DNA of 44,759 nt from a virus, in the IMG/VR virus record IMGVR_UViG_3300000311_000002, positions 1 to 44,759 of that record. One strand, given 5' to 3'. Each line of letters starts with the position of its first letter. Position 1 is the stretch's first letter. Positions 17,670-34,495 of this stretch are shown piece after piece. The notes under the pieces are model-generated. The model was not told the DNA's origin, made no database searches, and saw nothing but the letters and a program-made list of their open reading frames with translations. The position numbers were made by a program, and so were the translations under genes.

Positions 17670-18092
17670 ATGCCATACATTTTTGATGCTGATGATTTAA
17701 TAGAGGTAGCAATAGCGGGTGGTTCTGTAACTAAATTTATTGAAAAAACACCTATTGATAATAAAAAAACACCAAAAAATATTGATCCAGATGGGCCTAG
17801 TGAGTCAATGGATTTTCAACAAGCTGCGGTTGAAATAGGAAAGGCTATACCAAAAATTCTTCTTGCTATGAAGTCTGTTTCAAGCATGGAGGAAAAGAGA
17901 GTGTTTGTTGGGATGCTTGAGAGGGCTGTAGACGCTCAGATGTACCTATCCGCTTATTCCTCAAATGCGAGCCAATATAGCCTAAAAAAGGCTGGGGTGG
18001 CTGTAGAGAGGTTTAATGAAGTAGTAAAGGAAGCTAGAAAGCTCTCTGATTCTCTCTCTTTCCCTGTTGTTGGCCATTTTCCTTCTAAGTAA
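17670..18092 (+). CDS. tagged head-module protein, 140 aa
   Basis: The N-terminus DADDLIEVAIAGGSVTKFIE is a divergent copy of the short helix-G-helix tag seen in many neighbours. A Lys/Pro-rich linker follows, then a helical domain (residues 45-135). AGGAG precedes the ATG. It is the first gene of the head module, after the long hairpin. The body is not recognised; a virion-internal or assembly role is inferred from the tag and position. Confidence 0.6.
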   Translation: MPYIFDADDLIEVAIAGGSVTKFIEKTPIDNKKTPKNIDPDGPSESMDFQQAAVEIGKAIPKILLAMKSVSSMEEKRVFVGMLERAVDAQMYLSAYSSNASQYSLKKAGVAVERFNEVVKEARKLSDSLSFPVVGHFPSK

Positions 18093-18121
18093 TTTATAAT
18101 TATTTAAATTTATTAAGTTTT

Positions 18122-18292
18122 ATGAAGATTCGTAACACTGAAATAAATGAAGTTATTGCAGTGAGAATTATTGATCGAGTCTTAGATGGTGATGATTTAA
18201 GTACTGCTATAGATTCAGTTATGACTCCTATAAGTAGGGTAGAAATTTCATTAGAAGACTTACTAGGTAAGGATGACATAAATGTTTTATGA
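18122..18292 (+). CDS. 56-aa protein consisting mostly of the shared tag
   Basis: The short frame encodes a polar start, then VRIIDRVLDGDDLSTAIDSV, a clear copy of the shared tag, and about 20 further residues ending in a LEDLLG helix. Its stop overlaps the next gene by 11 bases. Upstream DNA is AT-rich without a clear ribosome site. It supports the tag being a stand-alone element. Short scaffolding or core peptides are a possible role. Confidence 0.55.
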   Translation: MKIRNTEINEVIAVRIIDRVLDGDDLSTAIDSVMTPISRVEISLEDLLGKDDINVL

Positions 18293-19016
18293 TGATATAA
18301 AAAGAATTGTAGATAATTTAATAGAAGGGTATGATTTAGTTTTTTTACTTGATGAAGAAGTAGAATATCAAGAGAAGGATGGGAAATTTGGCCTTCAAAC
18401 AGGTAATAGGCTAACTTTTTTTAGGCATGGTGGAAACCCTTTTAGGTATAATCAAGCTAAAGCAAAAGGCCCAGAGGAAGAAGAAAAGTATAGACAAAAT
18501 CATATCCATAGTTTTGATAGTTTTCTTAAACATCATGGTGTTGTTAAAGATAATATTATTAAAACACCTACTTTTGACACCCATAGACTTTTATATACCG
18601 GGCTTGAAAAATTTCATTTAGACCCAGAAGCTGAACATAGTTTAACCCATCAAGAAGTTAAGGCTTTAGTTAAGCATACTACTTTTTTAAGGCACGAAAT
18701 AGCCCAAAAGTTTAGCCCTGCATTTTTTGAGAAGCATAATATTGATCGTAACGAGGTTAAAGAACATCCTTATAAGAATACAGCTAGAAGTATTTATGTG
18801 ACTACCCCACTTGACAGGAAAAGTGGTGGAGTTAATACAGAAGATGGGGTTGGACTATCCTTACCAGTTATGGGACGAAACCAACGTGGTGGATTTGAAC
18901 TACACCAGGTTAGAGCTAAAAGAGTTGGTATAGACGCTAAGACAGGTGGTGCTAAGTTTAGAAGTAAGTATCTTCGTGACCCGGTTGTTAGAAGGGAAAA
19001 GGTTAGGAAACATTAA
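18282..19016 (+). CDS. tagged head-module protein, 244 aa
   Basis: The tag is at the very N-terminus (IKRIVDNLIEGYDLVFLLDE), followed by a His/Lys-rich helical body and a glycine-rich C-terminus with GGVNTEDGVGLSLPVMG and RGGFELHQVRAKRVGID. No family is recognised. The basic composition would suit packing next to DNA. The stop shares its last base with the next ATG. AAGGATG gives a ribosome site inside the previous mini-gene. Confidence 0.65.
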   Translation: MFYDDIKRIVDNLIEGYDLVFLLDEEVEYQEKDGKFGLQTGNRLTFFRHGGNPFRYNQAKAKGPEEEEKYRQNHIHSFDSFLKHHGVVKDNIIKTPTFDTHRLLYTGLEKFHLDPEAEHSLTHQEVKALVKHTTFLRHEIAQKFSPAFFEKHNIDRNEVKEHPYKNTARSIYVTTPLDRKSGGVNTEDGVGLSLPVMGRNQRGGFELHQVRAKRVGIDAKTGGAKFRSKYLRDPVVRREKVRKH

Positions 19017-19396
19017 TGTTTGATTGGCCTAGTCAGGTAATCCTAAATGAAGAGGATATCGTATTTGACCATGAAGACTCTCATGGTGTGATAATAGACC
19101 CTCTTTTATACCAGCGCGATCCACAAGCAGCTAAAGAAAGAGAAATAAGGCCAAGAGAATATGGAATTATTCAAATACAAATGGATAATTTATATTCTTA
19201 TTCAATATGGATATATCCTAATATTATGCATGAGTTTGAGGATTATGAGCTTTTTCGTAGGTGCCTATTAAAATATGTTAAAGATGAAGAATTAGTCGAG
19301 AGAGCAGCAACTTGTGTAGCTAATTTTAAATTAGTAAATATAGATTTAAAAGAAAAAGTAGCCTATGCAGTTCTTGGTTACGGTAGAATTGCATAG
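19016..19396 (+). CDS. hypothetical protein, 126 aa
   Basis: A soluble alpha/beta protein without the tag; its centre reads REYGIIQIQMDNLYSYSIWI, followed by helices. It could be a partner of the preceding tagged protein, to which it is coupled by a one-base overlap. The family is unknown. Confidence 0.6.
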   Translation: MFDWPSQVILNEEDIVFDHEDSHGVIIDPLLYQRDPQAAKEREIRPREYGIIQIQMDNLYSYSIWIYPNIMHEFEDYELFRRCLLKYVKDEELVERAATCVANFKLVNIDLKEKVAYAVLGYGRIA

Positions 19397-19412
19397 ATAA
19401 ATAGGGTTGTAA

Positions 19413-19904
19413 ATGCCAAACGAAGACTATGCCGAACAGTTATTAAGGAACATGGCTATCGGTAATGCCCTTGTTGAGAGGCTAATTGGAGAAGTTAGAG
19501 ACTCCTCAACTATACTTGGTGAGCTTGAACGTAATGTTGGCGTTCTTCAACATGATGTTTCAGGTCTACGTAAAGATATAGATGACCTAGTTAGGATAGT
19601 TAGAGGAGAAGGCAACGGAACTTCTGGGTTAACGGGTAGAACGGTGACCTTAGAACATATTTCTGATGACCTTAGAAATGGGATAGAAAGTATTAGAGAA
19701 AACTGTAAAGTTCACTTAAAGGATTTAACTAATCAGAGAATTGAAGAAGCTAGACTTGAAAAAACAGAGAAACACCAAGAGAAATTAGAAGGAATTCGTG
19801 GTAAGTGGGTAGTGATGGCTGCCTTGTGTGGCACTTCTTCGGTAATCGGAGTTATTGCTGCTATAGTTTTAACTAAACTATTTCATTTATTTGTTTTTAA
19901 GTAA
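19413..19904 (+). CDS. coiled-coil protein with C-terminal membrane anchor
   Basis: The 163-residue protein has a long coiled coil (LGELERNVGVLQHDVSGLRK and DDLRNGIESI), a charged helix, then one membrane segment at the end (about residues 134-158). The layout resembles XhlA-type or other tail-anchored phage membrane proteins, and a holin or spanin-related role is possible. No known motif proves it. The AAATAGGGTTG upstream sequence gives a weak ribosome site. Confidence 0.6.
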   Translation: MPNEDYAEQLLRNMAIGNALVERLIGEVRDSSTILGELERNVGVLQHDVSGLRKDIDDLVRIVRGEGNGTSGLTGRTVTLEHISDDLRNGIESIRENCKVHLKDLTNQRIEEARLEKTEKHQEKLEGIRGKWVVMAALCGTSSVIGVIAAIVLTKLFHLFVFK

Positions 19905-19907
19905 TAT

Positions 19908-20483
19908 ATGTTTGATTTAGACGCTATAATAGAATCTGTTTTAAACGGGGAATCAGTAGAATCAGTAATAGATAGGACCATTAGAGTAGAAGACAAAAGA
20001 CCCCCACACTATTATGTACATTTAGGTGTTAACCCCTGTTTTCGTGGTGTTGGGTATAAGATGTGGGTATTAGAGAAGAGAGAACTTGAAGAGATATTAA
20101 AAAGGGATTTTTGGAATAAAGAGGTTATTTGGAATAAACAAGAAGATAGTTCAATTAAATTAATTAAAGAGGAATACCCTAAATCTATTAAGCATTTATT
20201 AAATACACATAGGGGAATTAAATTACTTAATGAAAACTTTGAACTTTTAAATAGTGGGGAAGTTTATAATTCAGTGAACTTATCAGGAGACCTAAAGACT
20301 ACTAAATTCCTCGGTGCATGGAGGGGGTTTTCCGAATCTACTTTTGGTAAAATCCCTTTCATTCATATTCATAATGTTTTAGATTCCATAAATAAATTTG
20401 ACGGTTATAAAATTTTGTTAGAAAGCTTAGATAATTTACACCCAAAAGGAAAAGTATTTATTTCGGTTAATGTAAGGAGATAA
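19908..20483 (+). CDS. tagged head-module protein, 191 aa
   Basis: The N-terminus is a clear tag (AIIESVLNGESVESVIDRTI). The body is alpha/beta with HYYVHLGVNPCFRGVGYKMW near the start and no recognised family. It begins three bases after the upstream stop. The body is unrelated to other tagged proteins, as expected if the tag is a sorting signal. Confidence 0.62.
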   Translation: MFDLDAIIESVLNGESVESVIDRTIRVEDKRPPHYYVHLGVNPCFRGVGYKMWVLEKRELEEILKRDFWNKEVIWNKQEDSSIKLIKEEYPKSIKHLLNTHRGIKLLNENFELLNSGEVYNSVNLSGDLKTTKFLGAWRGFSESTFGKIPFIHIHNVLDSINKFDGYKILLESLDNLHPKGKVFISVNVRR

Positions 20484-20485
20484 GA

Positions 20486-21016
20486 ATGCCCGCACCTAAA
20501 AGACCACCGTGCCCACCAACAACCGGTTACTCGTTACCACAAGAACTAGACAAAGATCCTAATGAAAAGTTTGAGGTTGGGGCTAAGGTAAGACGAGTTC
20601 CAATGGATTTACCCACTATGAGTGGGGGGACGAAGAAGTCTCATGTACCCGCTGGCCATTCTGGTGTAGGGAAGGTAGTTGGATTTTATGGTGGTAAGGA
20701 TCATCCTCCGACAGTAATAGTTAATTGGGGGAATGGTGGCAGAGATCTAAGGAGTGTGCATACTCATAAGGAATTAGAACCAGTTAAGGAAAGCCTAAAT
20801 AGTACGGGATATGCTGTTGATAGACTAATAGAAGGAGACTCTATTGAAGATATCATGAATGAAATATTTTCTCCTTCTAATAAACCGAAAAAACTCGGTA
20901 GTCAACCCTCGCATTTGAAGGGGACGGGCGATAAAAATAGTGGTCCAATACAACCAAATACAGACACAAGTAGGATGTTCTCTATAACACCTCCTCAAAG
21001 TAATATTGGTAAGTAA
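20486..21016 (+). CDS. KOW-like protein with internal tag, 176 aa
   Basis: The protein has a Pro-rich start and a beta-barrel-like part (FEVGAKVRRV, then GVGKVVGFYGG and TVIVNWGNGG). The tag lies near the C-terminus (AVDRLIEGDSIEDIMNEIF, about residues 110-128), followed by a disordered tail. GTGxV and VxNWG are typical of KOW/SH3-like barrels that often bind nucleic acid. The internal tag position is an exception to the N-terminal rule. GGAG precedes the ATG. Confidence 0.65.
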   Translation: MPAPKRPPCPPTTGYSLPQELDKDPNEKFEVGAKVRRVPMDLPTMSGGTKKSHVPAGHSGVGKVVGFYGGKDHPPTVIVNWGNGGRDLRSVHTHKELEPVKESLNSTGYAVDRLIEGDSIEDIMNEIFSPSNKPKKLGSQPSHLKGTGDKNSGPIQPNTDTSRMFSITPPQSNIGK

Positions 21017-21020
21017 ATAT

Positions 21021-22247
21021 ATGAATACTAGCAGTTTAATAGAAAATTTTATTAATGGAGAAGATATAAATTATTTATTAGATTCTATATTAGAAGAGGC
21101 AGATTTTAATAATGTTTTAGAATGTACCGCTCATATTTATCTTCCTGATGGGTTACCTGAAGAGGTGTATGAGAAATACTTACATCCAGGAATAGAACCC
21201 GGTATAGAAGAGGGCAGAGCTACTCATCCAGCCAGTAAAAAAGAATTACATCAAGTCGGCTCGTTTGGCCTTACTTACGGTCAGGCACATGCTATAACCG
21301 GAGGATTGTCTAACCCAGGAAAGATGCCTGGCTATGGTTACTCATTACCGGCGTGGAGATGCCATGTTGGGTCTGTTTTACATAAAATAGCGAAAAATGT
21401 CTGCCATAATTGCTATGCCAGGGCAGGAAGATACTTATTTCCTAATACAGCAACTAATACTACTAAGAGAATAGATTCCATAAGTCATCCACATTGGGCT
21501 CCTGCAATGGCAACACAAATAGCTTACCATGCTAGGAAGATAAACTATCGTGGGAAAGAAGTAAAACCACACGTATTATTTAGGTGGCATGATTCTGGTG
21601 ACTTACAATCCCCTGAACACTTAGAAAAGATAGCTGAGGTAGCTAGAATGACTAAGGACCACGATGTTAAGCACTGGCTACCAACAAAGGAATATAAACA
21701 TCTTGATAAATGGCTTGAGGCTGGAAAAAGGTTAGGTAAGAAGGATCATGAGTTAGTACCTGAAAATATGGTTATAAGGGTTTCCCACCCTTCCGTGGAT
21801 GAAAGGGCCACATCTTTATACAAAAAATATTCTCATATACCTGGGATATCTTTTGCTAGTGTTACGGATGATGAGCATTTCTCCGGTCATACTTGCCCAG
21901 CGGGTAAACAGGATGGTATGTGTATACCAAAAGACGGTAGTCCTGGATGTATAAAGTGTTGGGATCGTAATACAAAAGATATAAATTACCCAAAGAGAAA
22001 AACACCTTTTACTAAAAAAGAGGGCGAGCCGAAATATAAGGATAAGGGTTGGTTAAATATGATTCAGGATCGAGCTAATAAGTGGTCGCAAAAGTTTAAG
22101 AGTCAATATAATGTAGGAGAATACGATCCTAATAAAGTAGCAAAAACATCTGATCATCACGACAAAATGATTAAAATGCTAGGAAAAATGGGTGGGGAGA
22201 AATACCAAAATCCTGGTGAATTAATAAAGATAGGTGGTCTTAAATAA
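21021..22247 (+). CDS. Gp88-like protein with N-terminal tag
   Basis: The 408-residue protein starts with the tag (SLIENFINGEDINYLLDSIL). The body resembles the phage Gp88 family (PF17338): GYSLPAWRCHVG, VCHNCYARAGRYLFPN (C128, C131), LFRWHDSGDLQ, THDHDVKHW-like helix, and a C-terminal cysteine cluster TCPAGKQDGMC...CIKCWD. The conserved cysteines and HDSGD suggest a metal-binding, possibly enzymatic, protein; the family's function is not established. I chose the ATG after the upstream stop over an earlier GTG or TTG-type start. The tag on this enzyme-like body suggests delivery in the virion. Confidence 0.72.
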   Translation: MNTSSLIENFINGEDINYLLDSILEEADFNNVLECTAHIYLPDGLPEEVYEKYLHPGIEPGIEEGRATHPASKKELHQVGSFGLTYGQAHAITGGLSNPGKMPGYGYSLPAWRCHVGSVLHKIAKNVCHNCYARAGRYLFPNTATNTTKRIDSISHPHWAPAMATQIAYHARKINYRGKEVKPHVLFRWHDSGDLQSPEHLEKIAEVARMTKDHDVKHWLPTKEYKHLDKWLEAGKRLGKKDHELVPENMVIRVSHPSVDERATSLYKKYSHIPGISFASVTDDEHFSGHTCPAGKQDGMCIPKDGSPGCIKCWDRNTKDINYPKRKTPFTKKEGEPKYKDKGWLNMIQDRANKWSQKFKSQYNVGEYDPNKVAKTSDHHDKMIKMLGKMGGEKYQNPGELIKIGGLK

Positions 22248-22345
22248 TTGACTATAAACAAAATTTTAAAAATTTCTCCTTAAACACAGTCATATAGTAT
22301 GTGACCAACAATATCTTATGGCCAAGACTACTAAAGAGGAAAGAT

Positions 22346-22765
22346 ATGAGAAATAAAGATGTAACTTTTGAAGAGTTGGTTGAAGCTACAGAGAATGGGC
22401 TTCATCCTATGGAAATTATTGAGGCTCAGTTAGGCCAAGATAGAAAAGATGACTTTACGGATGAAAATGTAAAAGTTCGTGAATTCGCTCGAATCGCTGG
22501 CCAATGTGCCGGTGCTGTGCCTAATATAGGTCCTAATTGGATTGATGTTATTGCGACCAGTTTGAGAAAGGCTAATAAAGAAGGTATGAGTGAGCTTATT
22601 CAAATGGCGCAAAGAAACAGAGACCAATATGATAGTACGTCTAAGATTGATGCTGGTGGATCTTACGAGTTATGGAGTAGCATTTTACGGGGATTACTAG
22701 CTGTAAGAACAGATCAGGTCCCCCCAGGTCCAGCATCTATGATAGACAAACCAAACCTGGCGTAA
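22346..22765 (+). CDS. tagged head-module protein, 139 aa
   Basis: The N-terminus VTFEELVEATENGLHPMEII is a divergent tag (helix, NG, helix). The body is helical, with a central AGAVPNIGPNWIDVIATSLR. AGAGGAAAG gives the ribosome site for the chosen ATG. The 98 bases upstream hold no gene and only weak promoter-like AT-rich sequence. The family is unknown. Confidence 0.6.
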   Translation: MRNKDVTFEELVEATENGLHPMEIIEAQLGQDRKDDFTDENVKVREFARIAGQCAGAVPNIGPNWIDVIATSLRKANKEGMSELIQMAQRNRDQYDSTSKIDAGGSYELWSSILRGLLAVRTDQVPPGPASMIDKPNLA

Positions 22766-25025: not shown

Positions 25026-26642
25026 ATGGATAATTTAATATTAACTGAAGATTTTAGTGGGTTCATCCCTAATATTTTAGAGTCTGGGCCTAATAAGCCT
25101 TTAAAAATGGAAGGTATTGTTGGGCTTGGAAATTACGTAAACGAAAATAACAGGTACTATAGTGAGTCTGTATTACGTAATGCGTTGGAAAGCCCGAAGC
25201 TAAAAACTATGCTTAAAGAGGGAAGGTGTCTTGGGGAACTTGGGCATCCTAAACCTGAAGTAGGCCCTCAGTTAGAAAGAGCCAGTCACAAGTGGTTAAA
25301 CTTTGTTCTTGATACTAAAGAGGATAAACGTTGCCCAGTATGTGAGTCTGGTCATGGCCCGCATGTGCATTTAAGAGGGACCGAGGTAGTTTTAAGCACC
25401 CCTTATGGCAATGTTTTAAAATCATTAGTAAATGATGGGGTAAAGGTAGAAGCCAGTAGCCGTGGTAGTGGTAAATGTACAGAATCAACTATGAATGGAA
25501 GATTAGTAAACGTAGTTGAAGATGGATATAGTTTTGACTCAGTTGACCACGTTTTATATGCTAGTGCTACCGGGGCTCATACTCTTCCAGTTTCGTCAAT
25601 TAATGGCGGTTCCACAATGAACGCTGGGATGGATGACGTTATAATTTCTGCTGTTGGTAACCTACTTTCTGAAAATTGTTCAGTTAATGAGTTACAGGGA
25701 TATAAAAATGTAGTTTCAGATATGTTAGAAACTTATAAAGGTAGTACTAAATTTGTTTCTAATGCTAGTAGTTTAATTGAATCAATAGATGTTCGTATTT
25801 CCAATTATGGGAATACCTCTGTTCAGGTGCCCAAAAATTACGGTTCCTGGGTTAAAGATAAATTGGAGGTAAATAGAATGAGCGAGACTAAGGAGCACGA
25901 TATCCAATCCCTAGCTAGGGAGTTGGCTGCTTCAGAGGTTCAACGTGTTCGTGATGAATATGAAAGAAGAATTGCTGAAGCCGTTTCTACTATTGACGGC
26001 TTACAGGATGAACTAGAAGCTGTAAATAATAGATATGCTAGAGCCGAAAGTATTGGTAAAGAACTATTATCTCAGGTGAAAGAGCTTCAGATTAAGAACG
26101 AAGCCTACAAAGATCACATTGAGCAAGAATTAAGTGAAGAAGAAGACGAAGAAGGGCATACTCTTTCTGAAAAGTTTGAAGTATCAAAAAAGATAATTGA
26201 TGAGCTAGTTGGTAGAGTTCAAAGACTAATGGTTTATGAAAATAGATCCAATGCCGCTGAGAAGCTATTGGGTGAAACCATTGCTAGAATTCGACGTGAC
26301 CGATTAGTATCTCATGTTGATAATATGCTAGCTAATTCGGGTCTTCCTGAAAGTGTTAGAGGAAAGATCAAGCCAATTATATTAGAAGCAACAACCGCTA
26401 AGGAAGCTAATGAAAAGTTTGCTACTGTTTATAGTGTTCTTAGCGAGGGACTAACAAAAGAAGCGCCAGTTGGTAAAGGTAAGGTATTGACGAATGGAGC
26501 CCTCCCGAAACCAGAATCGGTAACCGAACAAACCCTATCTGAAAAACCAATTGAAGGTCCAGATGAAAATGATGAACTGGATGAGGCCACTTATCAAACA
26601 AAGTTTGCTGAGGGGCTTATGAATAGGTTACTAAACGGATAA
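25026..26642 (+). CDS. prohead protease (gp21-like) fused to scaffold region
   Basis: The 538-residue protein begins with a T4 gp21-type protease (S77). Seen: GNYVNENNRYYSESVL, CLGELGHPKPEVG (catalytic H74), RASHKW and VEASSRGSG (serine 144 or 145). A CPVCxSGHGPHVH insert at about 103-115 looks like a zinc knuckle and is unusual. From about residue 285 the protein is a charged coiled coil typical of a scaffold (gp22-like). T4 keeps these as separate proteins. A strong internal ribosome site and ATG suggest that the scaffold is also made alone. The protease removes the core and trims capsid proteins after LxE or IxE-type sites. Confidence 0.85.
   Translation: MDNLILTEDFSGFIPNILESGPNKPLKMEGIVGLGNYVNENNRYYSESVLRNALESPKLKTMLKEGRCLGELGHPKPEVGPQLERASHKWLNFVLDTKEDKRCPVCESGHGPHVHLRGTEVVLSTPYGNVLKSLVNDGVKVEASSRGSGKCTESTMNGRLVNVVEDGYSFDSVDHVLYASATGAHTLPVSSINGGSTMNAGMDDVIISAVGNLLSENCSVNELQGYKNVVSDMLETYKGSTKFVSNASSLIESIDVRISNYGNTSVQVPKNYGSWVKDKLEVNRMSETKEHDIQSLARELAASEVQRVRDEYERRIAEAVSTIDGLQDELEAVNNRYARAESIGKELLSQVKELQIKNEAYKDHIEQELSEEEDEEGHTLSEKFEVSKKIIDELVGRVQRLMVYENRSNAAEKLLGETIARIRRDRLVSHVDNMLANSGLPESVRGKIKPIILEATTAKEANEKFATVYSVLSEGLTKEAPVGKGKVLTNGALPKPESVTEQTLSEKPIEGPDENDELDEATYQTKFAEGLMNRLLNG
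25878..26642 (+). CDS. nested scaffold protein from internal start
   Basis: In frame with the protease gene, GGAGGT followed eight bases later by ATG would start a 254-residue protein (MSETKEHDIQSLARELAA). It consists of helical coiled coil with an acidic stretch (ELSEEEDEEG). The ribosome site is among the best in the region and lies exactly at the domain border, as in lambda C/Nu3. The separate product would act as the prohead core. It is predicted, not proved. Confidence 0.65.
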   Translation: MSETKEHDIQSLARELAASEVQRVRDEYERRIAEAVSTIDGLQDELEAVNNRYARAESIGKELLSQVKELQIKNEAYKDHIEQELSEEEDEEGHTLSEKFEVSKKIIDELVGRVQRLMVYENRSNAAEKLLGETIARIRRDRLVSHVDNMLANSGLPESVRGKIKPIILEATTAKEANEKFATVYSVLSEGLTKEAPVGKGKVLTNGALPKPESVTEQTLSEKPIEGPDENDELDEATYQTKFAEGLMNRLLNG

Positions 26643-26671: not shown

Positions 26672-28195
26672 ATGATTTCAGGTAATTCACTTCAAGAAGA
26701 AATGACAGGGCTCCAAGATAACTTTTTAAGTGTTGGAAAAGTCCTATCAGAAAGCAAATGGAGTAATATATGTAATGTTGGCTCCATGGATAATGTTTCT
26801 AAGTATGGCTTAGCTGTCATGCTTGAAAACCTATCTCGTTATATGAATAACATGGATGAAGCTACTAGAGCGGTTAATATCGGCGATTTCCAAAAATACG
26901 CATTCCCGCTTGTAAGGGCAATCTTTCCTGAATTGATTGCTAACTCTTTAGTTTCGGTTCAGCCTATGTTAGGACCGGCAAGTTTGGTTTTCTACATGGA
27001 TTTCGTGTTTGCAACGAATAAGGGATCAGTTCGTCGTGGTGATACCATGATGTCTTCAGTAACCCGTGGTCCAAATCAACTTTCTTATACTTCTCCCCAA
27101 GTTGATTCGGAACCTTTGGTAACTGGTGATGGTTCTACTGTTAGTTGGACAAACCAATCTCTATTATTTACTCCAATCGTTCCCGGTTCTTTAAGTATTA
27201 CTGATGGAGTTCAAACTCTTACTGATGATGGTCAAGGAAATTTAGTTGGCAATACTGGTTCAGGAACCAATACTATTAACTATTCTACCGGCGCATTAAA
27301 TTTCAGTTTTTCCGGTGCTCCTGATAGTGGTAGTGTAGTTGCTGGAACTTGGACATATGATATGGAAGCCAACCCATTGGTACCAGAGGTTGACTTACAG
27401 CTTAACTCGTCTCCGGTTATCGCTAGACCCCGTAAACTTCGGGCAAAGTGGTCGCTTGAGGCTGCCTACAACATGCGTTCATTGCATGGTTTAGAAGCAG
27501 AGGTTGAGTTGACGTCAGTAATTGGTTCTGAAATTCGTTTTGAAATCGACCGAGAAATCATCAACGATTTACAGAATCATGCGGCTGCTGGGTCTGTGTT
27601 CTGGAATAAGGACCTACCACAAGGGGTGTCTTTGGCAGAACAAAAGCTTTCAATGGTTGACTGCCTACAAACTGGTTGTAACGTAATTCACCAGAAGACC
27701 GGTCGTGCAACAGGTACGTGGCTTCTTTGTGGTGAGAGTGTAGCAACCATTGTTGAGACCCTCCCTGGTTTTATTGCTACCCCAGGTCTACCTAATGGTA
27801 TGGTAAAGGGAGCTTACAGAGCGGGTAATTTAAATGGAAAGTGGGAAATTTTTAAGGACCCCTTTTACACTAATAATTACTTCTTAATGGGATTCAAGGG
27901 ACAAAGATTCCTTGAGGCTGGTTATATTTATGCCCCGTATATTCCTCTTTACTCAACTCCAACCATCGTTCTGGACGATTTCGTTGCTCGTAAGGGTCTA
28001 GCGACTCAGTATGGCAAGAAAGCCGTCAACCCACTGTTCTACCTAACAGGACAAATGGGAACTGGAGCACAACTTGAGGCGAAGGCTGGTGTTGCTGCTG
28101 GTACTATTAGTTCCAGTGGTCAAGCACGTTTGACCCACGGTGATGCTGAGGCTGACCTTGGTTTTAGTACGGGTCGAGGGGTTTTTGGAGTATAA
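26672..28195 (+). CDS. major capsid protein (T4 gp23-like)
   Basis: The 507-residue protein is of gp23 length and has its landmarks: AFPLVRAIFPELIANSLVSV then QPMLGPASLVFYMDFVF, and C-terminal IPLYSTPTIVLDDF. The first ~65 residues probably form the region cut off by the prohead protease. At about 146-232 a beta domain with PGSLSITDGV, LTDDGQGNL and INYSTGALNFSF is inserted, like one in the protein at 23.0 kb. AGGAGGT gives a strong ribosome site. It is followed by a strong terminator. Confidence 0.88.
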   Translation: MISGNSLQEEMTGLQDNFLSVGKVLSESKWSNICNVGSMDNVSKYGLAVMLENLSRYMNNMDEATRAVNIGDFQKYAFPLVRAIFPELIANSLVSVQPMLGPASLVFYMDFVFATNKGSVRRGDTMMSSVTRGPNQLSYTSPQVDSEPLVTGDGSTVSWTNQSLLFTPIVPGSLSITDGVQTLTDDGQGNLVGNTGSGTNTINYSTGALNFSFSGAPDSGSVVAGTWTYDMEANPLVPEVDLQLNSSPVIARPRKLRAKWSLEAAYNMRSLHGLEAEVELTSVIGSEIRFEIDREIINDLQNHAAAGSVFWNKDLPQGVSLAEQKLSMVDCLQTGCNVIHQKTGRATGTWLLCGESVATIVETLPGFIATPGLPNGMVKGAYRAGNLNGKWEIFKDPFYTNNYFLMGFKGQRFLEAGYIYAPYIPLYSTPTIVLDDFVARKGLATQYGKKAVNPLFYLTGQMGTGAQLEAKAGVAAGTISSSGQARLTHGDAEADLGFSTGRGVFGV

Positions 28196-28271: not shown

Positions 28272-28715
28272 ATGGCAAAGAAAAATTTCGAAGATCAAGA
28301 AAGCGACAGTAATTTTAATAAAACTAATTATACTATTTTTCATACTCCAGGTGGCCCAGTAAAAGAGGTGGAAGGGGCTAATTTAAAAAAACAATTAGAA
28401 AAGGGGTGGAAACCAGGGAAACCTGTACGAAGTCCGTTAAAACTAATAACAAAGGAAGAGATAGAAAATATAGTGGATTTATTAGTTGAGGGTGAAGATA
28501 TAGATAGTATTTTTGAGTCTGCTTCTGATCATAACTTTAAAAAAGATTTTGGGATATGTGCGTCTAAGGGGTGTAATAAACCGGGTGATTTTACAGCAAC
28601 CTCAAGAGCTGATGGTGGTTTTATAGGGCATTTTTGTAAGGGGTGTAAAGAGTCTGGTAATTTTGATACTGTTAATACTAGTATTAAACCTATTGATAGA
28701 AAAAGTTTGAGATAA
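28272..28715 (+). CDS. zinc-binding protein with internal tag, 147 aa
   Basis: The tag is in the middle (EIENIVDLLVEGEDIDSIFE, about 63-82). It is followed by a zinc-binding domain with CASKGC and FCKGC. The N-terminal part contains IFHTPGGPVKEVEGANLKK. AGGAAATAAT precedes the ATG. It starts the unit after the capsid terminator. The body is unrecognised. Confidence 0.65.
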   Translation: MAKKNFEDQESDSNFNKTNYTIFHTPGGPVKEVEGANLKKQLEKGWKPGKPVRSPLKLITKEEIENIVDLLVEGEDIDSIFESASDHNFKKDFGICASKGCNKPGDFTATSRADGGFIGHFCKGCKESGNFDTVNTSIKPIDRKSLR

Positions 28716-28731: not shown

Positions 28732-29028
28732 ATGCCCTTTAAACATCGTTCAATTGGCCATGAAGATGAGGAAAGTAGTTTATTTAAGTGGTTAGCAGGT
28801 ATAACCGCTACTTTAATAACTGCCTTAGCTATTGGGGCCTTTGGGTTTGCTTGGAATACAAATTCTAAGTTGATTGAGTTACAGCAACAAGAAAAAGCTA
28901 TAGCAGAACAGAAAGACCAGCATATAAAACATTGGAAGTATGATGCTTTTTTATTGAAACAAATAAATGAATTGAGATTTAAAAATGACTTACCCCCAGT
29001 TACAATGGATTGGGGTAGTAGCGAGTAA
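28732..29028 (+). CDS. small membrane protein, 98 aa
   Basis: One membrane segment (about 21-42, WLAGITATLITALAIGAFGF) is followed by a coiled coil (KLIELQQQEKAIAEQKDQ). Topology could fit a holin- or spanin-like protein or a membrane anchor for head assembly. It has no tag. The family is unknown. Confidence 0.6.
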   Translation: MPFKHRSIGHEDEESSLFKWLAGITATLITALAIGAFGFAWNTNSKLIELQQQEKAIAEQKDQHIKHWKYDAFLLKQINELRFKNDLPPVTMDWGSSE

Positions 29029-29032
29029 TATT

Positions 29033-29275
29033 ATGAGGACAACAACAAAACCAATATCAATTTTAATAAAATCTTTAATTTCTGGTGACTTAACAACCGA
29101 CGAAATTTTTGAGGGTAAGAAACAAAAATTTACTACTATAAAAGTTGGGAGTGCTTTGGATGCATTAGGAAGTGTTAGAAAACCTATTCCAAAACCTACT
29201 GAAATTTTACGGGCAGAAAAAGGAAAAGGAAGCTATCGAAGGAGACCAAAGCATAGAAGACCATATGAGGGATAG
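29033..29275 (+). CDS. tagged basic protein, 80 aa
   Basis: The N-terminus ISILIKSLISGDLTTDEIFE matches the shared tag. The rest is highly basic (KGSYRRRPKHRRPYEG at the end), as expected of a protein packed with DNA. I chose the ATG after the upstream stop. The combination recalls T4 internal proteins, which are small, basic and tagged. Identity as an internal head protein is inference. Confidence 0.6.
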   Translation: MRTTTKPISILIKSLISGDLTTDEIFEGKKQKFTTIKVGSALDALGSVRKPIPKPTEILRAEKGKGSYRRRPKHRRPYEG

Positions 29276-29287: not shown

Positions 29288-31792
29288 ATGTCTGAAGATT
29301 TAGATAGAGTTGAATATCCAATTAAAGTTGATGAAGAATATATTTATAAATATGTTAAATATATGCTTGGGTATCCTCATGTTGAAGTTGAAGTTACTGA
29401 TGTTCAATTAAAAGCATTTCTAGAACATACTCTAAGTTATTATTCAAGATTACTACCAAAAATTAGATGGTATAGTATTACTGCTTATGCTGGTGTTCAA
29501 GAGTATTTATTAAATAAAGATACCATCGGGTATGGTATTGTAAAAGTTTTAATACCTAGATTAGATCCTATAGCTCCATTGTTATTATCAAGTGGACCCC
29601 GTTTAGATATTTTTGGTTATAAATATTGTTTAACTGATGATACATTAATAAGTTTACTTGATGGTAGAGAGAGATCAATAAGAGAACTGTATGATGAGTA
29701 CGGTGATAGGGAATTTTGGGTATATTCTTGTGACAAAGATGGAAACGTAAAACCCGGTAGGGCTTGGGGAATACACCAAACCGGTTGTAAAGAGAAGGTA
29801 ATAAAAGTTACTTTAGATAATGGTAAATTTATTAGATGTACGCCGGGCCATAAGTTTTTAATGAGGGACGGAAGTTATAAGCCAGCCGGGGAGTTGAAGC
29901 CTGGTGATAGTTTAATGCCGTTGTATAGGAGAACTAGAAAGGTTGGTAGTTCTAAATCAGAATATGAGCTTTCTAGGGCCGGTGCAGAGGAACAGTTTAC
30001 TCATAGAGTGGTTTCCGAGAGCACTAATAATGGAAAGTGTTCTTATTGTGGGATTGAGCTGCCCGATAGAAAACATACTATAAGACACCATATAAATTTT
30101 AATAATAAAGACAATAGACCTATAAATATTCAATGGGTTACTTATAAGGAACACCGATTCATACATAGTGAGTTTACTAAGTTGTGGAAGAGTGAAGATT
30201 TTCGTATTGCTCATTCTGAAAGAGCAAGCGAAAGAATGAGAAAACTTTGGGAGAACGAAGAATTTAGAGACAAGATGGTTGAGAAGGCCAGAAGACGAAT
30301 GGCTAAGCAGCACAAGGACCCAAAGTTCCGAGAGTTGGTAAATGAGGCAATTAAGGAGAAGTGGAAGGACCCAGAGTATTTAAAAAGACAAGGGGAAATT
30401 AGTAGAAAAACAATGAAGAAACTGTGGGATAATACAGAGTTTCGTGAAAAGCAGTCTAAAATTCTAACTGAGCTTTGGAAGGACCCGGAATTTCGGGTTA
30501 ATAATTGTAGACTAAGTAGTGAAAGAAATAGGAATAAGTGGAAAGACGAAGAATTTCGGGCTGAATTTAGCAAAAGACATAGCTCTTTGATGAAGCAGAA
30601 ATGGAATGATCCAGAATACCGTAAGAGAGCGGTGGAAGCTGCAACAACTAAAGAAAGTCGTTCAAAGAGAAGTGTAAACACCAGCAAACAAATGAAGGAT
30701 AAGTGGGCGAATGATACCGAGTTCAGGGATAGAAAAATTGCGGCCAATCGTGATAGATTAAATAAGAATTGGGGTGACCCTGACTATAAAGAGGGAATGC
30801 GAATAGTTAGTAAAAAAGCAATGCATAAGCGGTGGGGACATACTGAGGACTTTGACTCGTGTGAAAGGTGTGCTAATAACCATAAAGTTATTAGTATTGA
30901 AGATGCTGGGTATGAGGATGTTTGGGATTTTTCTGTAGACAAGTACCACAATTTCGCTTTAAATTCAGGTATTTACGTGTCGAACTCGTATCCGTATCGT
31001 GACATTTGTATATCAGGTGATACTGAGATACTTATGGTTGATAATACGAAAATTAGTTTATCTACTTTATACAATTCTATAGGTGGTAAGTCATTTAGTG
31101 TATTTTCTTATGATATAGTTGATAAAAAAGTTATTATTGGTAACGGTCATTCATTGAGGGAGACACATAAAGATGCGAGTATAATTCAGATAAATCTATC
31201 AAATGGGAGATTTTTTAAATGCACCCCTGATCATAAATTACTTACGAATGGATTGAGTTACAAAGAGGCTTGTAAAATAAATAATGGTGAAGTTTTAGTT
31301 GGCGGGCTAACTGTAACTAGTGTTATAGATGCGGGTATTAGTAATGTTTATGATTTAACGGTAGATAAATACCATAACTTCAAGTTAGCCTGTGGGGTAT
31401 TTGTTAAAAATTGTGAACTCTGGACCGACTATATGTATTTCCAAGAAGCACAGCGTATACTTAGCTCACAGTTCGATTATGAAGTCTTAAATAACTCTTT
31501 ACATATTCACCCAAAACCTGACGAATCTTTCCCATTGACTTACGCAAGTGCTTTCCCAAGGGGTATTGACTCAGTTCCTTATGATGATGTCGATTGGATT
31601 AAGAGGCACGTATTAGCTCAAACTAAGATAGCTGTAGGTCACGCGAGACGTAAGTTTCAAGTACCAGGTGCGCAAACCTCTCAGCCCCTTGATGGTCGTG
31701 AGATGGTAAATGATGGTAATGTTGAGCTTCAAAATTTAGAAGAGGACTTATTAAGAAGAACTCCTCCATTCCCATTTTATAGGGATTTATAA
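29288..31792 (+). CDS. neck/head-completion-like protein with two inteins
   Basis: The 834-residue precursor has three extein parts: residues 1-113, a seven-residue piece SYPYRDI (567-573) and 709-834. Joined, they give a ~246-residue protein (YVKYMLGYPHVEVEVTDVQL at the start, LRRTPPFPFYRDL at the end). Its size and start resemble T4-type neck proteins (gp13/gp14), and its position after the capsid gene fits. Two inteins must be removed before the virion protein is functional. The extein family is moderately certain; the inteins are clear. Confidence 0.75.
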   Translation: MSEDLDRVEYPIKVDEEYIYKYVKYMLGYPHVEVEVTDVQLKAFLEHTLSYYSRLLPKIRWYSITAYAGVQEYLLNKDTIGYGIVKVLIPRLDPIAPLLLSSGPRLDIFGYKYCLTDDTLISLLDGRERSIRELYDEYGDREFWVYSCDKDGNVKPGRAWGIHQTGCKEKVIKVTLDNGKFIRCTPGHKFLMRDGSYKPAGELKPGDSLMPLYRRTRKVGSSKSEYELSRAGAEEQFTHRVVSESTNNGKCSYCGIELPDRKHTIRHHINFNNKDNRPINIQWVTYKEHRFIHSEFTKLWKSEDFRIAHSERASERMRKLWENEEFRDKMVEKARRRMAKQHKDPKFRELVNEAIKEKWKDPEYLKRQGEISRKTMKKLWDNTEFREKQSKILTELWKDPEFRVNNCRLSSERNRNKWKDEEFRAEFSKRHSSLMKQKWNDPEYRKRAVEAATTKESRSKRSVNTSKQMKDKWANDTEFRDRKIAANRDRLNKNWGDPDYKEGMRIVSKKAMHKRWGHTEDFDSCERCANNHKVISIEDAGYEDVWDFSVDKYHNFALNSGIYVSNSYPYRDICISGDTEILMVDNTKISLSTLYNSIGGKSFSVFSYDIVDKKVIIGNGHSLRETHKDASIIQINLSNGRFFKCTPDHKLLTNGLSYKEACKINNGEVLVGGLTVTSVIDAGISNVYDLTVDKYHNFKLACGVFVKNCELWTDYMYFQEAQRILSSQFDYEVLNNSLHIHPKPDESFPLTYASAFPRGIDSVPYDDVDWIKRHVLAQTKIAVGHARRKFQVPGAQTSQPLDGREMVNDGNVELQNLEEDLLRRTPPFPFYRDL
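29627..30985 (+). mobile_element. intein 1 with HNH-type endonuclease (453 aa)
   Basis: It runs from C114 to N566 of the precursor. Block A is CLTDDTLISLLDG and block B is FIRCTPGHKFL. Block F is VWDFSVDKYHNFAL, and the end is GIYVSN before Ser+1. The penultimate His is replaced by Ser, which is known but uncommon. The insert contains an HNH-type domain (CSYCG at 251-255, IRHHINFNNKDNRPINI, then HRFIH) and about 11 short repeats. It should be able to splice and to home. Confidence 0.88.
30179..30853 (+). repeat. about 11 tandem ~20-aa repeats in intein 1
   Basis: Units read KLWKSEDFR, KLWENEEFR, KWKDPEYLK, KLWDNTEFR, LWKDPEFR, NKWKDEEFR, QKWNDPEYR, DKWANDTEFR, KNWGDPDYK and KRWGHTEDF, each followed by a charged helix. 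They lie after the HNH part and probably form DNA-binding helical repeats that set target specificity. The repeats keep the opposite strand open, which creates a false antisense frame. Confidence 0.8.
31007..31411 (+). other. intein 2, mini-intein without endonuclease (135 aa)
   Basis: It runs from C574 to N708 of the precursor. Block A is CISGDTEILMVDN, block B is FFKCTPDHKLL, and block F is VYDLTVDKYHNFKL. The end is GVFVKN before Cys+1, with Lys in place of the penultimate His. Length and lack of insert show a mini-intein. Blocks A, B and F resemble intein 1, suggesting common origin. Confidence 0.88.
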
Positions 31793-31796
31793 AATT

Positions 31797-32204
31797 ATGT
31801 TGAAAAACACTAATACTAATGAAATAGAACCTTTGGATGGTTTAATTCCTTCACGTAAATTTAATTGGTCAATAAAAAATGTACCTGATCACATAAATTT
31901 ATGTCTTCATTCTTTATACTCAAAAGATAATAGTGACATAGTATTAGTATTTCGTACCTTTGTAGATTTACCTATGTCGTCTTTATACTTTCAAAATAGA
32001 GTGGAAAGGAATATAGGTATATTATTATTCTCAGGTTTAAAAGACTCAAAAGTAGTTAATGAGATAACAATATATTATAAAGATTGTAATATTATGCCTT
32101 TTGATTTAGATATGAGTCTTCCTGATCAGATGTTGGAAAAAGTTATATTTACTGGGGCTAAGTTTACTAGTACTGTAAGAGAACTATTAGAAGATGAATA
32201 TTAA
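31797..32204 (+). CDS. hypothetical head/neck-module protein, 135 aa
   Basis: A soluble alpha/beta protein (FNWSIKNVPDHINLCLHSLY, IVLVFRTFVDLPMSSLYF). It follows the neck-like gene by four bases and overlaps the J-domain gene by 11 bases. It may be a head-completion or tail protein, judging from position only. The family is unknown. Confidence 0.6.
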   Translation: MLKNTNTNEIEPLDGLIPSRKFNWSIKNVPDHINLCLHSLYSKDNSDIVLVFRTFVDLPMSSLYFQNRVERNIGILLFSGLKDSKVVNEITIYYKDCNIMPFDLDMSLPDQMLEKVIFTGAKFTSTVRELLEDEY

Positions 32205-32925
32205 CACAACTTTTTTAAACCTTATTGAAGAACTCTCAGATGATGAAGCTCATAATATATTTAATAAACATGGGGTAAATTCTCGTGGTAAAAGCCCGGA
32301 GGAGTTAAGTAAAAGTTATAGATCTTTGGTATTTAAAATTCATCCTGATCGTGGTGGATCATTAAAAGATACAAAAGATGTAAATGCTGCTTGGGACAGA
32401 TTGAAAAAGGGCAGTTCTAGTGGTGGGAGCGAAAGAAAGAGTTATCCAAGTGAACACCATAGACCTAGAGGATCTGTATCAACTCCTGAATGGGCATGGG
32501 CTGGGTATTCAGGTGGGCTTCCTCCTAGTTCTCATATTTATAATAATGATTATCGAGACCTAAATTTTATCAAGAAAAGAATGTGGGAACTCTCAGGTAA
32601 GTCCAAAGAAGAACACACAGTACACCAGTTTGATGGTAATTATTTTCGTAACACATTTACTGCTTATGGTAATAGTAATATACATCACCATATGGCTAAG
32701 GCAATGTTAAAGTGGGGGGCTCACGGTAATCCGTATAATACCAAGGCTATATTTGTCTCTAAAAAATCTGACCCTAAAAAACTTCATCTTGTTTGGGCTA
32801 ACGGTAAACATGTTGAACCGGGGGTGCATATAGAGCATAACTCTTTTAATAATAATCCATCAAATGATCAAGAATTCACAAAAAATCTATCTTCTTGGAT
32901 TGATTCTAAAGTACCAAAAAACTAA
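32194..32925 (+). CDS. J-domain (DnaJ-like) protein with N-terminal tag
   Basis: The 243-residue protein starts MNINTTFLNLIEELSDDEA, a second type of shared opening with an L-I-E site. A J domain follows (helix II SKSYRSLVFKIHPDRGG with HPD at 50-52, then DVNAAWDRLKKG). The long C-terminal domain contains HHMAKAMLKWGAHG and is unrecognised. J domains activate Hsp70 ATPases. A tagged J protein could be injected and redirect the host DnaK, which is inference. It shares its N-terminus with two nearby genes. Confidence 0.78.
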   Translation: MNINTTFLNLIEELSDDEAHNIFNKHGVNSRGKSPEELSKSYRSLVFKIHPDRGGSLKDTKDVNAAWDRLKKGSSSGGSERKSYPSEHHRPRGSVSTPEWAWAGYSGGLPPSSHIYNNDYRDLNFIKKRMWELSGKSKEEHTVHQFDGNYFRNTFTAYGNSNIHHHMAKAMLKWGAHGNPYNTKAIFVSKKSDPKKLHLVWANGKHVEPGVHIEHNSFNNNPSNDQEFTKNLSSWIDSKVPKN

Positions 32926-32937
32926 TATTAAAATTTA

Positions 32938-33345
32938 ATGGATATTAACACAACTTTTTTATCATTACTTGAGGGGAGAATTCAATTTGACATTCATCCT
33001 GTAGACAGGAAAAAATTACTAAAAACCTTCAAACCAAAATATAAAGATGTATTTGCTGACCATATTACTCATGAAATATCCGCTAGTGAGGGGGATAAAA
33101 GACCTAAGGTAAAGGGAGCACGTATAATAGGCCACGTTGATAATGGGGAGGATCTTGAAGCCTTGGTCGCTAAAGTTGGTAGTAACTTAAAAAGACCTGA
33201 TCGTGGTCAATATCATGTTACTTTGAGTTTAGATAAAGATAAAGGAAGAAATCCAGTTGATTCAAATGACATTATTTCAGACCTTGGGTACAAAAAGTTA
33301 AGGAAGTCAATTCCTATAAGAGTTAATACAAGATATATAGACTAA
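32938..33345 (+). CDS. tagged protein, 135 aa
   Basis: The opening MDINTTFLSLLEG is nearly the same as that of the J-domain gene, with L-L-E before Gly. The body is alpha/beta and basic (KKLLKTFKPKYKDVFADH, then GQYHVTLSLDKDKGR). No ribosome site is clear. The body is unrelated to that of the other genes with the same opening. Function is unknown. Confidence 0.62.
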   Translation: MDINTTFLSLLEGRIQFDIHPVDRKKLLKTFKPKYKDVFADHITHEISASEGDKRPKVKGARIIGHVDNGEDLEALVAKVGSNLKRPDRGQYHVTLSLDKDKGRNPVDSNDIISDLGYKKLRKSIPIRVNTRYID

Positions 33346-33352
33346 CGATAAA

Positions 33353-33832
33353 ATGCCTACTCCTCCTTTAATAGAAGAAACTGATCAAACCGGTATCGCT
33401 ACTGTCCCTTTTGGTGGTGGTAGGAGAGACCTTGAGTTTATCATAAGAACCAATTATGAACAGTTTATAAAATTATTCCCAAGGGTCTCTTTATACAAAC
33501 TTGATCGTGAAGTATCTAGACCTGACCCTTTATATAGAGAGAAGGTTCATAAGACTTATAGTGATATCCCAATTCCTGTTAATGCCTTCTTTGTTTTTCA
33601 TCCTCCTGATAAGCTGCTAAAAAATTTCGGGATCGAGGTAGAACACGACGCCTTGGTGGTTTTAAATGACCGGCAGTTGAATTTACTGGATGCAAAAATC
33701 GTCAAAGGAGACCTGATAGAATACTTGGGAATAAATTATGAGACCCTGGTGGTTAAACTTGTTGATTATTTTTTAAACACACAGGTACCATTAAATTCCC
33801 TAGCAGTCGTTAGACAGTTAGCAGCAAGGTAA
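33353..33832 (+). CDS. head-tail joining/stopper-like protein, 159 aa
   Basis: The pattern IPIPVNAFFVFHPPDKLL, then EHDALVVLNDRQLNLLDAKI and VKGDLIEYLGINYETLVVKL fits a small beta-barrel. GDLIEYxGxxYE is typical of head-tail stopper or connector proteins of long-tailed phages. It has no tag. The assignment is a pattern-level guess supported by position among head genes. Confidence 0.5.
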   Translation: MPTPPLIEETDQTGIATVPFGGGRRDLEFIIRTNYEQFIKLFPRVSLYKLDREVSRPDPLYREKVHKTYSDIPIPVNAFFVFHPPDKLLKNFGIEVEHDALVVLNDRQLNLLDAKIVKGDLIEYLGINYETLVVKLVDYFLNTQVPLNSLAVVRQLAAR

Positions 33833-33840
33833 TATAAATT

Positions 33841-34263
33841 ATGGAAAATATAAGTAAATCTTTAATAAAAGAGGCAGTTGATAAATTGATAGATGGTAAC
33901 TCTTTCAGTGAAATATTGGATACGGTATATAAAAAAGACCACCTTTCGGAAGCTAAACCACTTCATGTTGCTGGTGGGATGGTAAGGGGGCCAGACGGGG
34001 AACACCATGGCAGTGCCTACATTATTTATAAACCCGGTGCCACACCAAAACATCCTGCTGATCCATATATGGGTACTAACGATAGAGAAGAGGCTAAGAA
34101 GATAGCCCGTACAGTTAAGGGGCATGTTGCACAAACCTCTACTGGGTTTACTTGGCATCCAGAAGGGAGCCCAGAACATCAAGGGGGAAGGTGGAAAAGC
34201 TTTGCAAGTCGAACAGGTGGTTCTGGTAGGGCTCCAATTGTTGGATTAACGGTGGATAGGTAA
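33841..34263 (+). CDS. tagged protein, 140 aa
   Basis: The N-terminus SLIKEAVDKLIDGNSFSEIL is a clear tag, followed by a Gly/His-rich body (RGPDGEHHGSAYIIYKPGA, then EAKKIARTVKGHVAQTSTGF) and a glycine-rich tail. It starts eight bases after the upstream stop. The family is unknown. Confidence 0.62.
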   Translation: MENISKSLIKEAVDKLIDGNSFSEILDTVYKKDHLSEAKPLHVAGGMVRGPDGEHHGSAYIIYKPGATPKHPADPYMGTNDREEAKKIARTVKGHVAQTSTGFTWHPEGSPEHQGGRWKSFASRTGGSGRAPIVGLTVDR

Positions 34264-34264
34264 T

Positions 34265-34495
34265 ATGACTAATATTGATGAATTAATAAATTCTATCTTG
34301 GATGATGAAGAACTCGTTAATGAGGCTGTTAATAAATTAGTGACTCTTGCTAGAAGTCAAAAGGCTGGATGTTGTGGAAAGTGTAAACCTGGGGAAATAT
34401 GCTCTTGTGACCCTGTGCATGGTGGCAGTTGGTGTTCTGAACATGACCAGGATATTCCACCGGAATCCCAAAAAGTAGGACGTACCAGGAAGTAA
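34265..34495 (+). CDS. tagged cysteine-rich protein, 76 aa
   Basis: A tag-like N-terminus (IDELINSILDDEELVNEAVN) is followed by CCGKCKPGEICSC and WCSEHD, probably a zinc site. It follows the previous stop by one base. The family is unknown. Confidence 0.58.
   Translation: MTNIDELINSILDDEELVNEAVNKLVTLARSQKAGCCGKCKPGEICSCDPVHGGSWCSEHDQDIPPESQKVGRTRK

What the first reader, a model, noticed from the sequence alone, without database searches (positions are those of the whole stretch)
17670..34495. A shared helix-G-helix tag on many unrelated proteins around the capsid genes
At least ten proteins carry a short segment of the form hhxxLI(E/D/N)G(E/D)xhxxIhDxh. Examples are VDRLIEGDSIEDIMNEIF, IESVLNGESVESVIDRTI, IENFINGEDINYLLDSIL, IDRVLDGDDLSTAIDSVM, VDLLVEGEDIDSIFESAS, IKSLISGDLTTDEIF, VDKLIDGNSFSEILDTVY and VDNLIEGYDLVFLLDE. 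It is mostly N-terminal, but near the C-terminus at 20.8 kb and in the middle at 28.5 kb. The bodies have nothing in common (KOW-like, Gp88-like, zinc, basic). All lie within the head module with a gp21-like protease. In T4, internal proteins carry N-terminal capsid-targeting sequences cut by gp21 after LxE or IxE, and several tags here contain LIE, LVE or IFE. I infer a prohead-targeting tag that brings a set of effector proteins into the head. Counter-evidence: some copies lack a cleavage motif and two are internal.
Basis: partly seen in the sequence, partly recalled or inferred. Interest (0 to 1): 0.88.

Follow-up and report, generated by a model that had tools for sequence, protein, structure and literature searches.

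The report
Prohead-loading tags on phage cargo proteins
A virus of bacteria with a T4-style head carries the same short double-helix tag on about ten otherwise unrelated proteins made beside its capsid genes, and comparisons with other phages suggest the tag is an address label that loads proteins into the head as it is built.

Summary
Eight helix-G-helix segments in different proteins score above all 2,920 shuffled proteins when each is left out of its own profile. An unsupervised comparison of N-termini finds 19 matching pairs between 17.6 and 51 kb (shuffles: mean 2.0, maximum 5). A phage without a T4-type head shows no excess. The tag reaches beyond the window (48.3 and 50.3 kb) and recurs on other bodies around the head genes of uncultivated relatives.

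The targeting idea is well supported indirectly; no virion was measured here. (1) The head is T4-type: a Gp23 capsid protein and an S77 protease fused to a scaffold-like region. (2) A second tag, M(N/D)INTTxxxL(L/I)E, is the part that three untagged homologues of one body lack. GP88 homologues also start after its tag. (3) In cyanophage S-CREM2, published virion mass spectrometry found a SAM hydrolase, Cas9, a kinase and a cytidylyltransferase; all four carry a T4-CTS-like peptide at or near the N-terminus. The pattern then correctly predicted the virion NMNAT of S-SCSM1.

Not shown: that these window proteins are in virions, that the tags are cleaved, or what the bodies do. I file it as a new variant of T4-type capsid targeting.

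The parts
18164..18226 (+). helix-G-helix tag RIIDRVLDGDDLSTAIDSVMT in a 56-aa, almost tag-only protein (18122-18292)
   Evidence: leave-one-out 13.7 bits, 0 of 2,920 shuffles as high; also first hit of a gp67 prohead-core profile in this record, E 0.14
18303..18365 (+). tag RIVDNLIEGYDLVFLLDEEVE, N-terminal (protein 18282-19016)
   Evidence: leave-one-out 8.2 bits, 0 of 2,920 shuffles
19923..19985 (+). tag AIIESVLNGESVESVIDRTIR, N-terminal (protein 19908-20483)
   Evidence: leave-one-out 12.1 bits; top hit, 15.5 bits, of a profile made from other phages' tags only
20810..20872 (+). tag YAVDRLIEGDSIEDIMNEIFS, internal, residues 109-129 of 176, after a KOW-like body (protein 20486-21016)
   Evidence: leave-one-out 15.4 bits
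21033..21095 (+). tag SLIENFINGEDINYLLDSILE, N-terminal, on a GP88 protein (21021-22247)
   Evidence: leave-one-out 9.4 bits; Pfam GP88 3e-24; homologues elsewhere start after the tag
22373..22435 (+). tag ELVEATENGLHPMEIIEAQLG, N-terminal (protein 22346-22765)
   Evidence: seed of the extended profile, so its 14.8 bits are not independent; kept in homologues of G001 and G003
28467..28529 (+). tag NIVDLLVEGEDIDSIFESASD, internal, residues 66-86 of 147 (protein 28272-28715, next to the capsid gene)
   Evidence: leave-one-out 9.4 bits; relatives G003 and G004 have a 49-51 aa tag protein in the same place
33871..33933 (+). tag EAVDKLIDGNSFSEILDTVYK, N-terminal (protein 33841-34263)
   Evidence: leave-one-out 9.3 bits; low-confidence model shows two helices then the body
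29060..29122 (+). possible tag ILIKSLISGDLTTDEIFEGKK (protein 28985-29275)
   Evidence: weak: 1.6 bits
34280..34342 (+). possible tag ELINSILDDEELVNEAVNKLV (protein 34265-34495)
   Evidence: weak in the tag profile; second hit of the gp67 profile, not significant
32194..32229 (+). second tag family MNINTTFLNLIE, on a DnaJ-like protein (32194-32925)
   Evidence: clusters with 32938 and 34500; weak DnaJ match at residues 31-71
32938..32973 (+). second tag family MDINTTFLSLLE (protein 32938-33345)
   Evidence: untagged homologues in Phosso, SCTP-2 and Atu_ph07 lack 10-12 residues here
34500..34535 (+). second tag family MNINTTYEELLE (protein 34500-34787)
   Evidence: clusters with 32194 and 32938
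25026..26642 (+). S77 (gp21-type) head protease fused to a long C-terminal scaffold-like region
   Evidence: Pfam Peptidase_S77 1.5e-8, PHROG head maturation protease 1.3e-22; fusion aligned in six phages
26672..28195 (+). major capsid protein, Gp23 family; probable maturation cut after MDE (residue 63)
   Evidence: Pfam Gp23 2.2e-62; window MDE-AT, L003 LDE-TT, L004 LTE-TT at the same alignment place

Best explanation
The tags are capsid-targeting modules. During assembly the helix-turn-helix segment binds the internal core of the prohead (probably the scaffold part of the protease-scaffold fusion, or a small gp67-like core protein), so whatever protein carries it is enclosed when the Gp23 shell closes. 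Some tags, most clearly the INTTF family, probably end in an L/IxE site cut by the S77 protease, freeing the body inside the head for delivery with the DNA. Shown: the shared tag, its clustering around the head genes, the T4-type head set, untagged homologues of two bodies. Inferred: binding to the core, presence in virions, cutting, and delivery as helper proteins into the next host.
For: Tags beat all shuffles when left out and the excess of shared N-termini sits in 17.6-51 kb. A profile made only from other phages' tags puts five tagged head-region proteins on top of the record's 112 genes, two of them above ten shuffles. In the 241-kb relative G001 the best hits lie at 18-45 kb and 236-241 kb, not in between. 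Gp23 capsid protein and S77 protease, protease-scaffold fusion in relatives, LxE-type capsid cut site kept in relatives. Untagged homologues of the 32938 body lack the tag, which ends LLE; two of the three lie beside topoisomerase genes. GP88 homologues start after the tag. L/IxE occurs in 16 of 17 tag segments against 9.4 expected. In S-CREM2 five of six proteins with [FL]xxF[LM]xE near the N-terminus are mass-spectrometry virion proteins, including all four non-lytic enzymes found (PMC10665884). With the pattern fixed, the non-lytic enzyme of S-SCSM1 virions, NMNAT, carries it (PMC9602691). T4 precedent: CTS, L/I-x-E cutting, core with gp22/gp67/gp68 (PMC9026906).
Against: No virion data exist for this phage. 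Two strong tags are internal rather than N-terminal. The helix-G-helix family has no fixed cut site, and the tag-only protein has no L/IxE in the scanned segment before its last residues. The tag is unlike the T4 CTS in sequence. One strong hit in relative G007 (47.6 kb) lies far from its head genes. The S-CREM2 pattern was chosen after seeing six of those N-termini; S-SCSM1 alone gives p = 0.16. No untagged homologue was found for most bodies.
Confidence: 0.72

Rival explanations
1. The tag is an assembly-contact module of ordinary structural or core proteins of the head and neck, not a way to load cargo: each tagged protein is itself a small core or accessory part.
For: Almost tag-only proteins exist (18122-18292; G004 5910; G003 27554). 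The tag profile resembles the prohead core protein gp67 better than 40 column-shuffled controls (hhalign score 12.2 against a maximum of 8.0).
Against: Bodies include a GP88 domain and a DnaJ-like protein. Homologues of the 32938 body lie beside topoisomerase genes in two phages. T4-like cyanophages tag enzymes, not only structural parts.
Confidence: 0.13
2. The tag is a general protein-protein or DNA-binding helix pair (the first part resembles a helix-turn-helix) with a role in the infected cell, and its nearness to head genes only reflects late co-expression.
For: The consensus hxxhhxGxxxxxhhxxhh resembles part of a helix-turn-helix; a genuine-looking HTH in G001 (169996) gets a weak score. 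One tag in G007 lies far from the head genes.
Against: No recognition helix follows the tag; it is too short to be a DNA-binding domain by itself. Occurrence around head genes repeats in several relatives on unrelated bodies.
Confidence: 0.08
3. The proteins are an old paralogous family that kept only the N-terminal domain, with no shared function left.
For: Tag-coding DNA has diverged to 42% mean identity, as in an old family.
Against: Protein-level tag pattern is kept while DNA and bodies differ; the tag is also found inside proteins; bodies such as GP88 and 32938 have their own untagged homologues.
Confidence: 0.04
4. Chance likeness of amphipathic helices in an A+T-rich phage.
For: The segment is short and helix-prone; some listed members are weak.
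Against: No shuffled protein reaches eight of the tags in the leave-one-out test; no excess in the rest of the record or in a control phage.
Confidence: 0.03

Closest known systems
T4 capsid targeting sequence (CTS) of internal proteins IPI, IPII, IPIII
   Same: Short segment shared by otherwise unrelated proteins of a phage with Gp23 capsid, gp21-type protease and scaffold core; the window's INTTF family ends in L/IxE as the CTS does.
   Different: The main family here is a roughly 21-residue helix-G-helix with no sequence likeness to MKT(Y/F)xEF; it can sit inside the protein; about ten proteins carry it; no fixed cut site.
T4 prohead core protein gp67 (Pfam GP67)
   Same: N-terminal helix pair of similar length and pattern; core location; tag-only proteins look like gp67 in build.
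   Different: Only suggestive profile similarity; gp67 carries no cargo body; no Pfam GP67 match for tag proteins.
Propeptides of phiKZ-like giant phage head proteins (SPN3US, phiKZ)
   Same: N-terminal parts of several inner head proteins removed by the head protease and thought to target them into the prohead (PMC5694885).
   Different: Those are mostly over 100 residues and, apart from two paralogues, not described there as one shared short motif; cleavage motif differs.
N-terminal [FY]xxFLxE tags of T4-like cyanophage virion enzymes
   Same: Shared short N-terminus on unrelated bodies in phages with T4-type heads; bodies detected in virions by published mass spectrometry.
   Different: Single short helix ending in an LxE-type site with T4 CTS spacing; the window's main tag is a helix pair.

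Membership tests
T4 capsid targeting sequence (CTS) | phage has Gp23-type capsid, gp21-type protease and scaffold core | tested here: met
   Pfam Gp23 2.2e-62, Peptidase_S77 1.5e-8; scaffold-like C-terminal region aligned in relatives
T4 capsid targeting sequence (CTS) | shared segment on otherwise unrelated proteins | tested here: met
T4 capsid targeting sequence (CTS) | N-terminal position | tested here: not met
   Met for most, not for 20486 (residues 109-129) and 28272 (residues 66-86)
T4 capsid targeting sequence (CTS) | sequence likeness to T4 CTS | tested here: not met
   Tag profiles do not pick out T4 internal proteins; the INTTF family is closer by eye but was not tested by profile
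T4 capsid targeting sequence (CTS) | ends in an L/IxE site of the head protease | tested here: inconclusive
   L/IxE in 16 of 17 segments against 9.4 expected, but at varying places
T4 capsid targeting sequence (CTS) | sufficient for entry into the prohead; removed in the mature virion | not testable with these tools
   needs prohead loading assay and virion proteomics
gp67 prohead core protein | significant match to the GP67 family | tested here: not met
   No Pfam GP67 hit for tag proteins while T4 gp67 itself scores 1.8e-48
gp67 prohead core protein | profile-level similarity of the N-terminal helix pair | tested here: inconclusive
   hhalign score 12.2 against maximum 8.0 in 40 column shuffles, E 0.02 for a single comparison, probability 1%

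The most novel reading that the evidence does not exclude
The helix-G-helix tag is a borrowed piece of the prohead core itself (a gp67-like module): these phages load cargo by fusing a copy of a core component to it, at any position in the chain, and tag-only genes are surviving core parts. More broadly, each lineage of T4-type-head phages has its own core and matching address tag, so a phage's packaged proteins could be read from its genome.
Probability: 0.28. Interest if true: 0.78.

Novelty: new variant of a known kind. Interest (0 to 1): 0.62.

Why it matters
What T4-like phages carry inside their heads besides DNA is known for few phages. If the tags are address labels, packaged proteins can be predicted from sequence alone in uncultivated phages, and the predictions can be checked in cultured ones, as with the S-CREM2 and S-SCSM1 virion enzymes here. 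It would also offer new tag and scaffold pairs for loading proteins into phage heads.

Tried and rejected
A DNA pattern search for the tag in the own genome and a profile search of two relatives found nothing: the tag is too short for those filters, so relatives were fetched and scanned in Python. Pfam, PHROGs and PADLOC give no family for most bodies. tblastn of 18282, 19908, 33841 and 32194 in phage genomes found nothing, and no relative of the GP88 protein turned up in viral contigs. Tag profiles against T4, LIS04, GXN1, Colly and immuto gave no clear hit. Extraction of gp67 genes from 80 T4-like contigs picked the wrong small ORF in most; 18 were kept by eye. The unsupervised cluster in T4 is driven largely by homing endonucleases, not internal proteins, so that test is not a positive control there. 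Recurrent N-termini seen by eye in GXN1 and immuto did not stand out in the unsupervised test. AF2 models have low confidence (pLDDT 46-52) and were not searched further.
Full report
OBSERVATION. The window is bases 1-44,759 of an 81.8-kb virus record. I aligned ten helix-G-helix segments without gaps, left each out in turn and rescored it. Eight (18122, 18282, 19908, 20486, 21021, 28272, 33841 and 48295, the last outside the window) scored above all of 2,920 shuffled proteins; 50286 was weak and 17670 failed. In a test that knows nothing of the tag, all pairs of N-termini were compared after removing homologous proteins: 36 pairs and a cluster of 19 proteins against at most 15 pairs and clusters of 5 in 20 shuffles. 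The excess lies in 17.6-51 kb (19 pairs; shuffles mean 2.0, maximum 5); the other 63 genes give 8 pairs (maximum 8) and the phage HTVC027P, taken as a control without a T4-type head, 10 (maximum 14). Tag-coding DNA is on average 42% identical, so recent copying is not the cause.

EXTENT. The family is larger than reported: 22346 (kept in homologues of two relatives), 48295 and 50286 beyond the window, and possible members at 28985, 34265 and 46960. One member, 18122-18292, is nearly tag only. A second N-terminal family, M(N/D)INTTxxxL(L/I)E, sits on 32194, 32938 and 34500. In two low-confidence AF2 models the tag is two helices joined by a short turn.

SETTING. The capsid protein belongs to Gp23 (2.2e-62) and the protein before it is an S77 head protease (1.5e-8) with a long C-terminal region aligned in six phages, taken to be the scaffold. 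Capsid proteins of this phage and two relatives share an [LM]xE-[AT]T stretch; T4 gp23 has FLTE-A in its N-terminal part, its known cut.

RELATIVES. MCP searches gave eight uncultivated relatives with longer flanks, among them a 241-kb (G001) and a 205-kb contig (G007). With tags of other phages only, the top five of this record's 112 genes are tagged head-region proteins, two of them above ten shuffles. In G001 the best hits are at 18-45 kb and 236-241 kb, with nothing comparable in between. G007 has one strong hit at 47.6 kb, far from its capsid gene but about 1.6 kb from a second ORF with S77-like sequence (49742), a resemblance by eye. In G008 seven of 21 genes share a different N-terminus, xAxELIDxYLxE. 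My gene calls in the high-GC contigs G001 and G002 are rough.

BODIES WITHOUT TAGS. Homologues of the 32938 body in the jumbo phages Phosso, SCTP-2 and Atu_ph07 lack 10-12 residues at the N-terminus, matching the stretch MDINTTFLSLLE; in Phosso and Atu_ph07 the gene stands beside topoisomerase genes, in SCTP-2 near a clamp loader. GP88 homologues in HTVC027P and Seuss begin after the tag and a further stretch of roughly 60 residues. So at least two bodies exist elsewhere as untagged proteins.

VIRION EVIDENCE FROM COUSINS. Cyanophage S-CREM2 has a published list of 52 virion proteins (PMC10665884). Its four non-structural, non-lytic enzymes, SAM hydrolase, Cas9, an APH/ChoK-like kinase and a cytidylyltransferase, all carry [FL]xxF[LM]xE at or near the N-terminus (in Cas9 it starts at about residue 18); five of the six proteins with the pattern are virion proteins (p = 3e-4 among non-structural genes). 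I chose the pattern after seeing six of these N-termini, so that p-value is optimistic. With the pattern fixed I asked whether NMNAT, the one non-lytic enzyme the authors single out in S-SCSM1 virions (PMC9602691), carries it: it does (MKSFLQFLKE), as one of two hits in the genome (p = 0.16 alone). The spacing matches T4 CTS residues 4, 7, 8 and 10, which mutational work links to targeting and cutting (PMC9026906).

HOW IT MOST LIKELY WORKS. The tag binds the prohead core and carries its protein inside before the shell closes; some tags are then cut by the S77 protease. L/IxE occurs in 16 of 17 tag segments against 9.4 expected by shuffling and in 36% of untagged N-termini, but helical segments are prone to such motifs and the place is not fixed. 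A link to the core protein gp67 is suggested: the tag profile scores 12.2 against it, above all 40 column shuffles (maximum 8.0), and a gp67 profile ranks 18122 and 34265 first and second of 112 genes, though with E-values of 0.14 and 0.49. These numbers justify a test, not a claim.

VERDICT. Prohead targeting is the best reading (0.72), cutting is less certain (about 0.4 for the helix-G-helix family, my estimate), and effector function is open. The principle is known from T4; the segment, its free position in the chain and its number of bearers make this a new variant.

Noticed in passing
L016, contig G001 50331-52194: Seven consecutive small ORFs (74-116 aa) with different bodies all carry near the C-terminus G(R/S)(V/A)Gx(F/Y)SxxGPA, with varying codons: a protein-level C-terminal tag family in a relative of this phage.
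   Followed up: partly
L051 (G008) 1524-9804: Seven of 21 genes share an N-terminus xAxELIDxYLxE, most ending in a [LIMV]xE motif: another tag family in a phage with T4-type capsid and protease genes.
   Followed up: partly
L059 3837-13331 and L062 26609-27469 (S-CREM2): Virion-borne Cas9, SAM hydrolase, kinase and cytidylyltransferase share a T4-CTS-like N-terminus that would explain why they are in the particle.
   Followed up: yes
window 29288-31792 and 36085-38022: A probable neck protein and a trypsin-like protease each carry an intein; the second also has a LAGLIDADG domain. The head protease of L012 also looks interrupted by an intein (by eye).
   Followed up: no
L049 (G006) 9518-10384 and L035 (contig G007 170235-171101): The capsid gene of two relatives is split by an insert with an ORF that looks like a zinc-finger or endonuclease protein.
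   Followed up: no
L029 (contig G007 47613-50245): The one tag far from the head genes lies near a 167-aa ORF with S77-like sequence (by eye), perhaps a second protease and cargo pair.
   Followed up: no
window 38973-44208; L002 2276-15838: Several predicted secreted or fibre-like proteins with TPT-rich repeats, apparently tail fibres.
   Followed up: no
L001 3596-3901 (record 48295-48600), G003 21238, G004 11837, G001 44550: The motif FGAI(Y/R) followed by an aromatic- and N/H-rich stretch recurs shortly after an E in differently built proteins.
   Followed up: no
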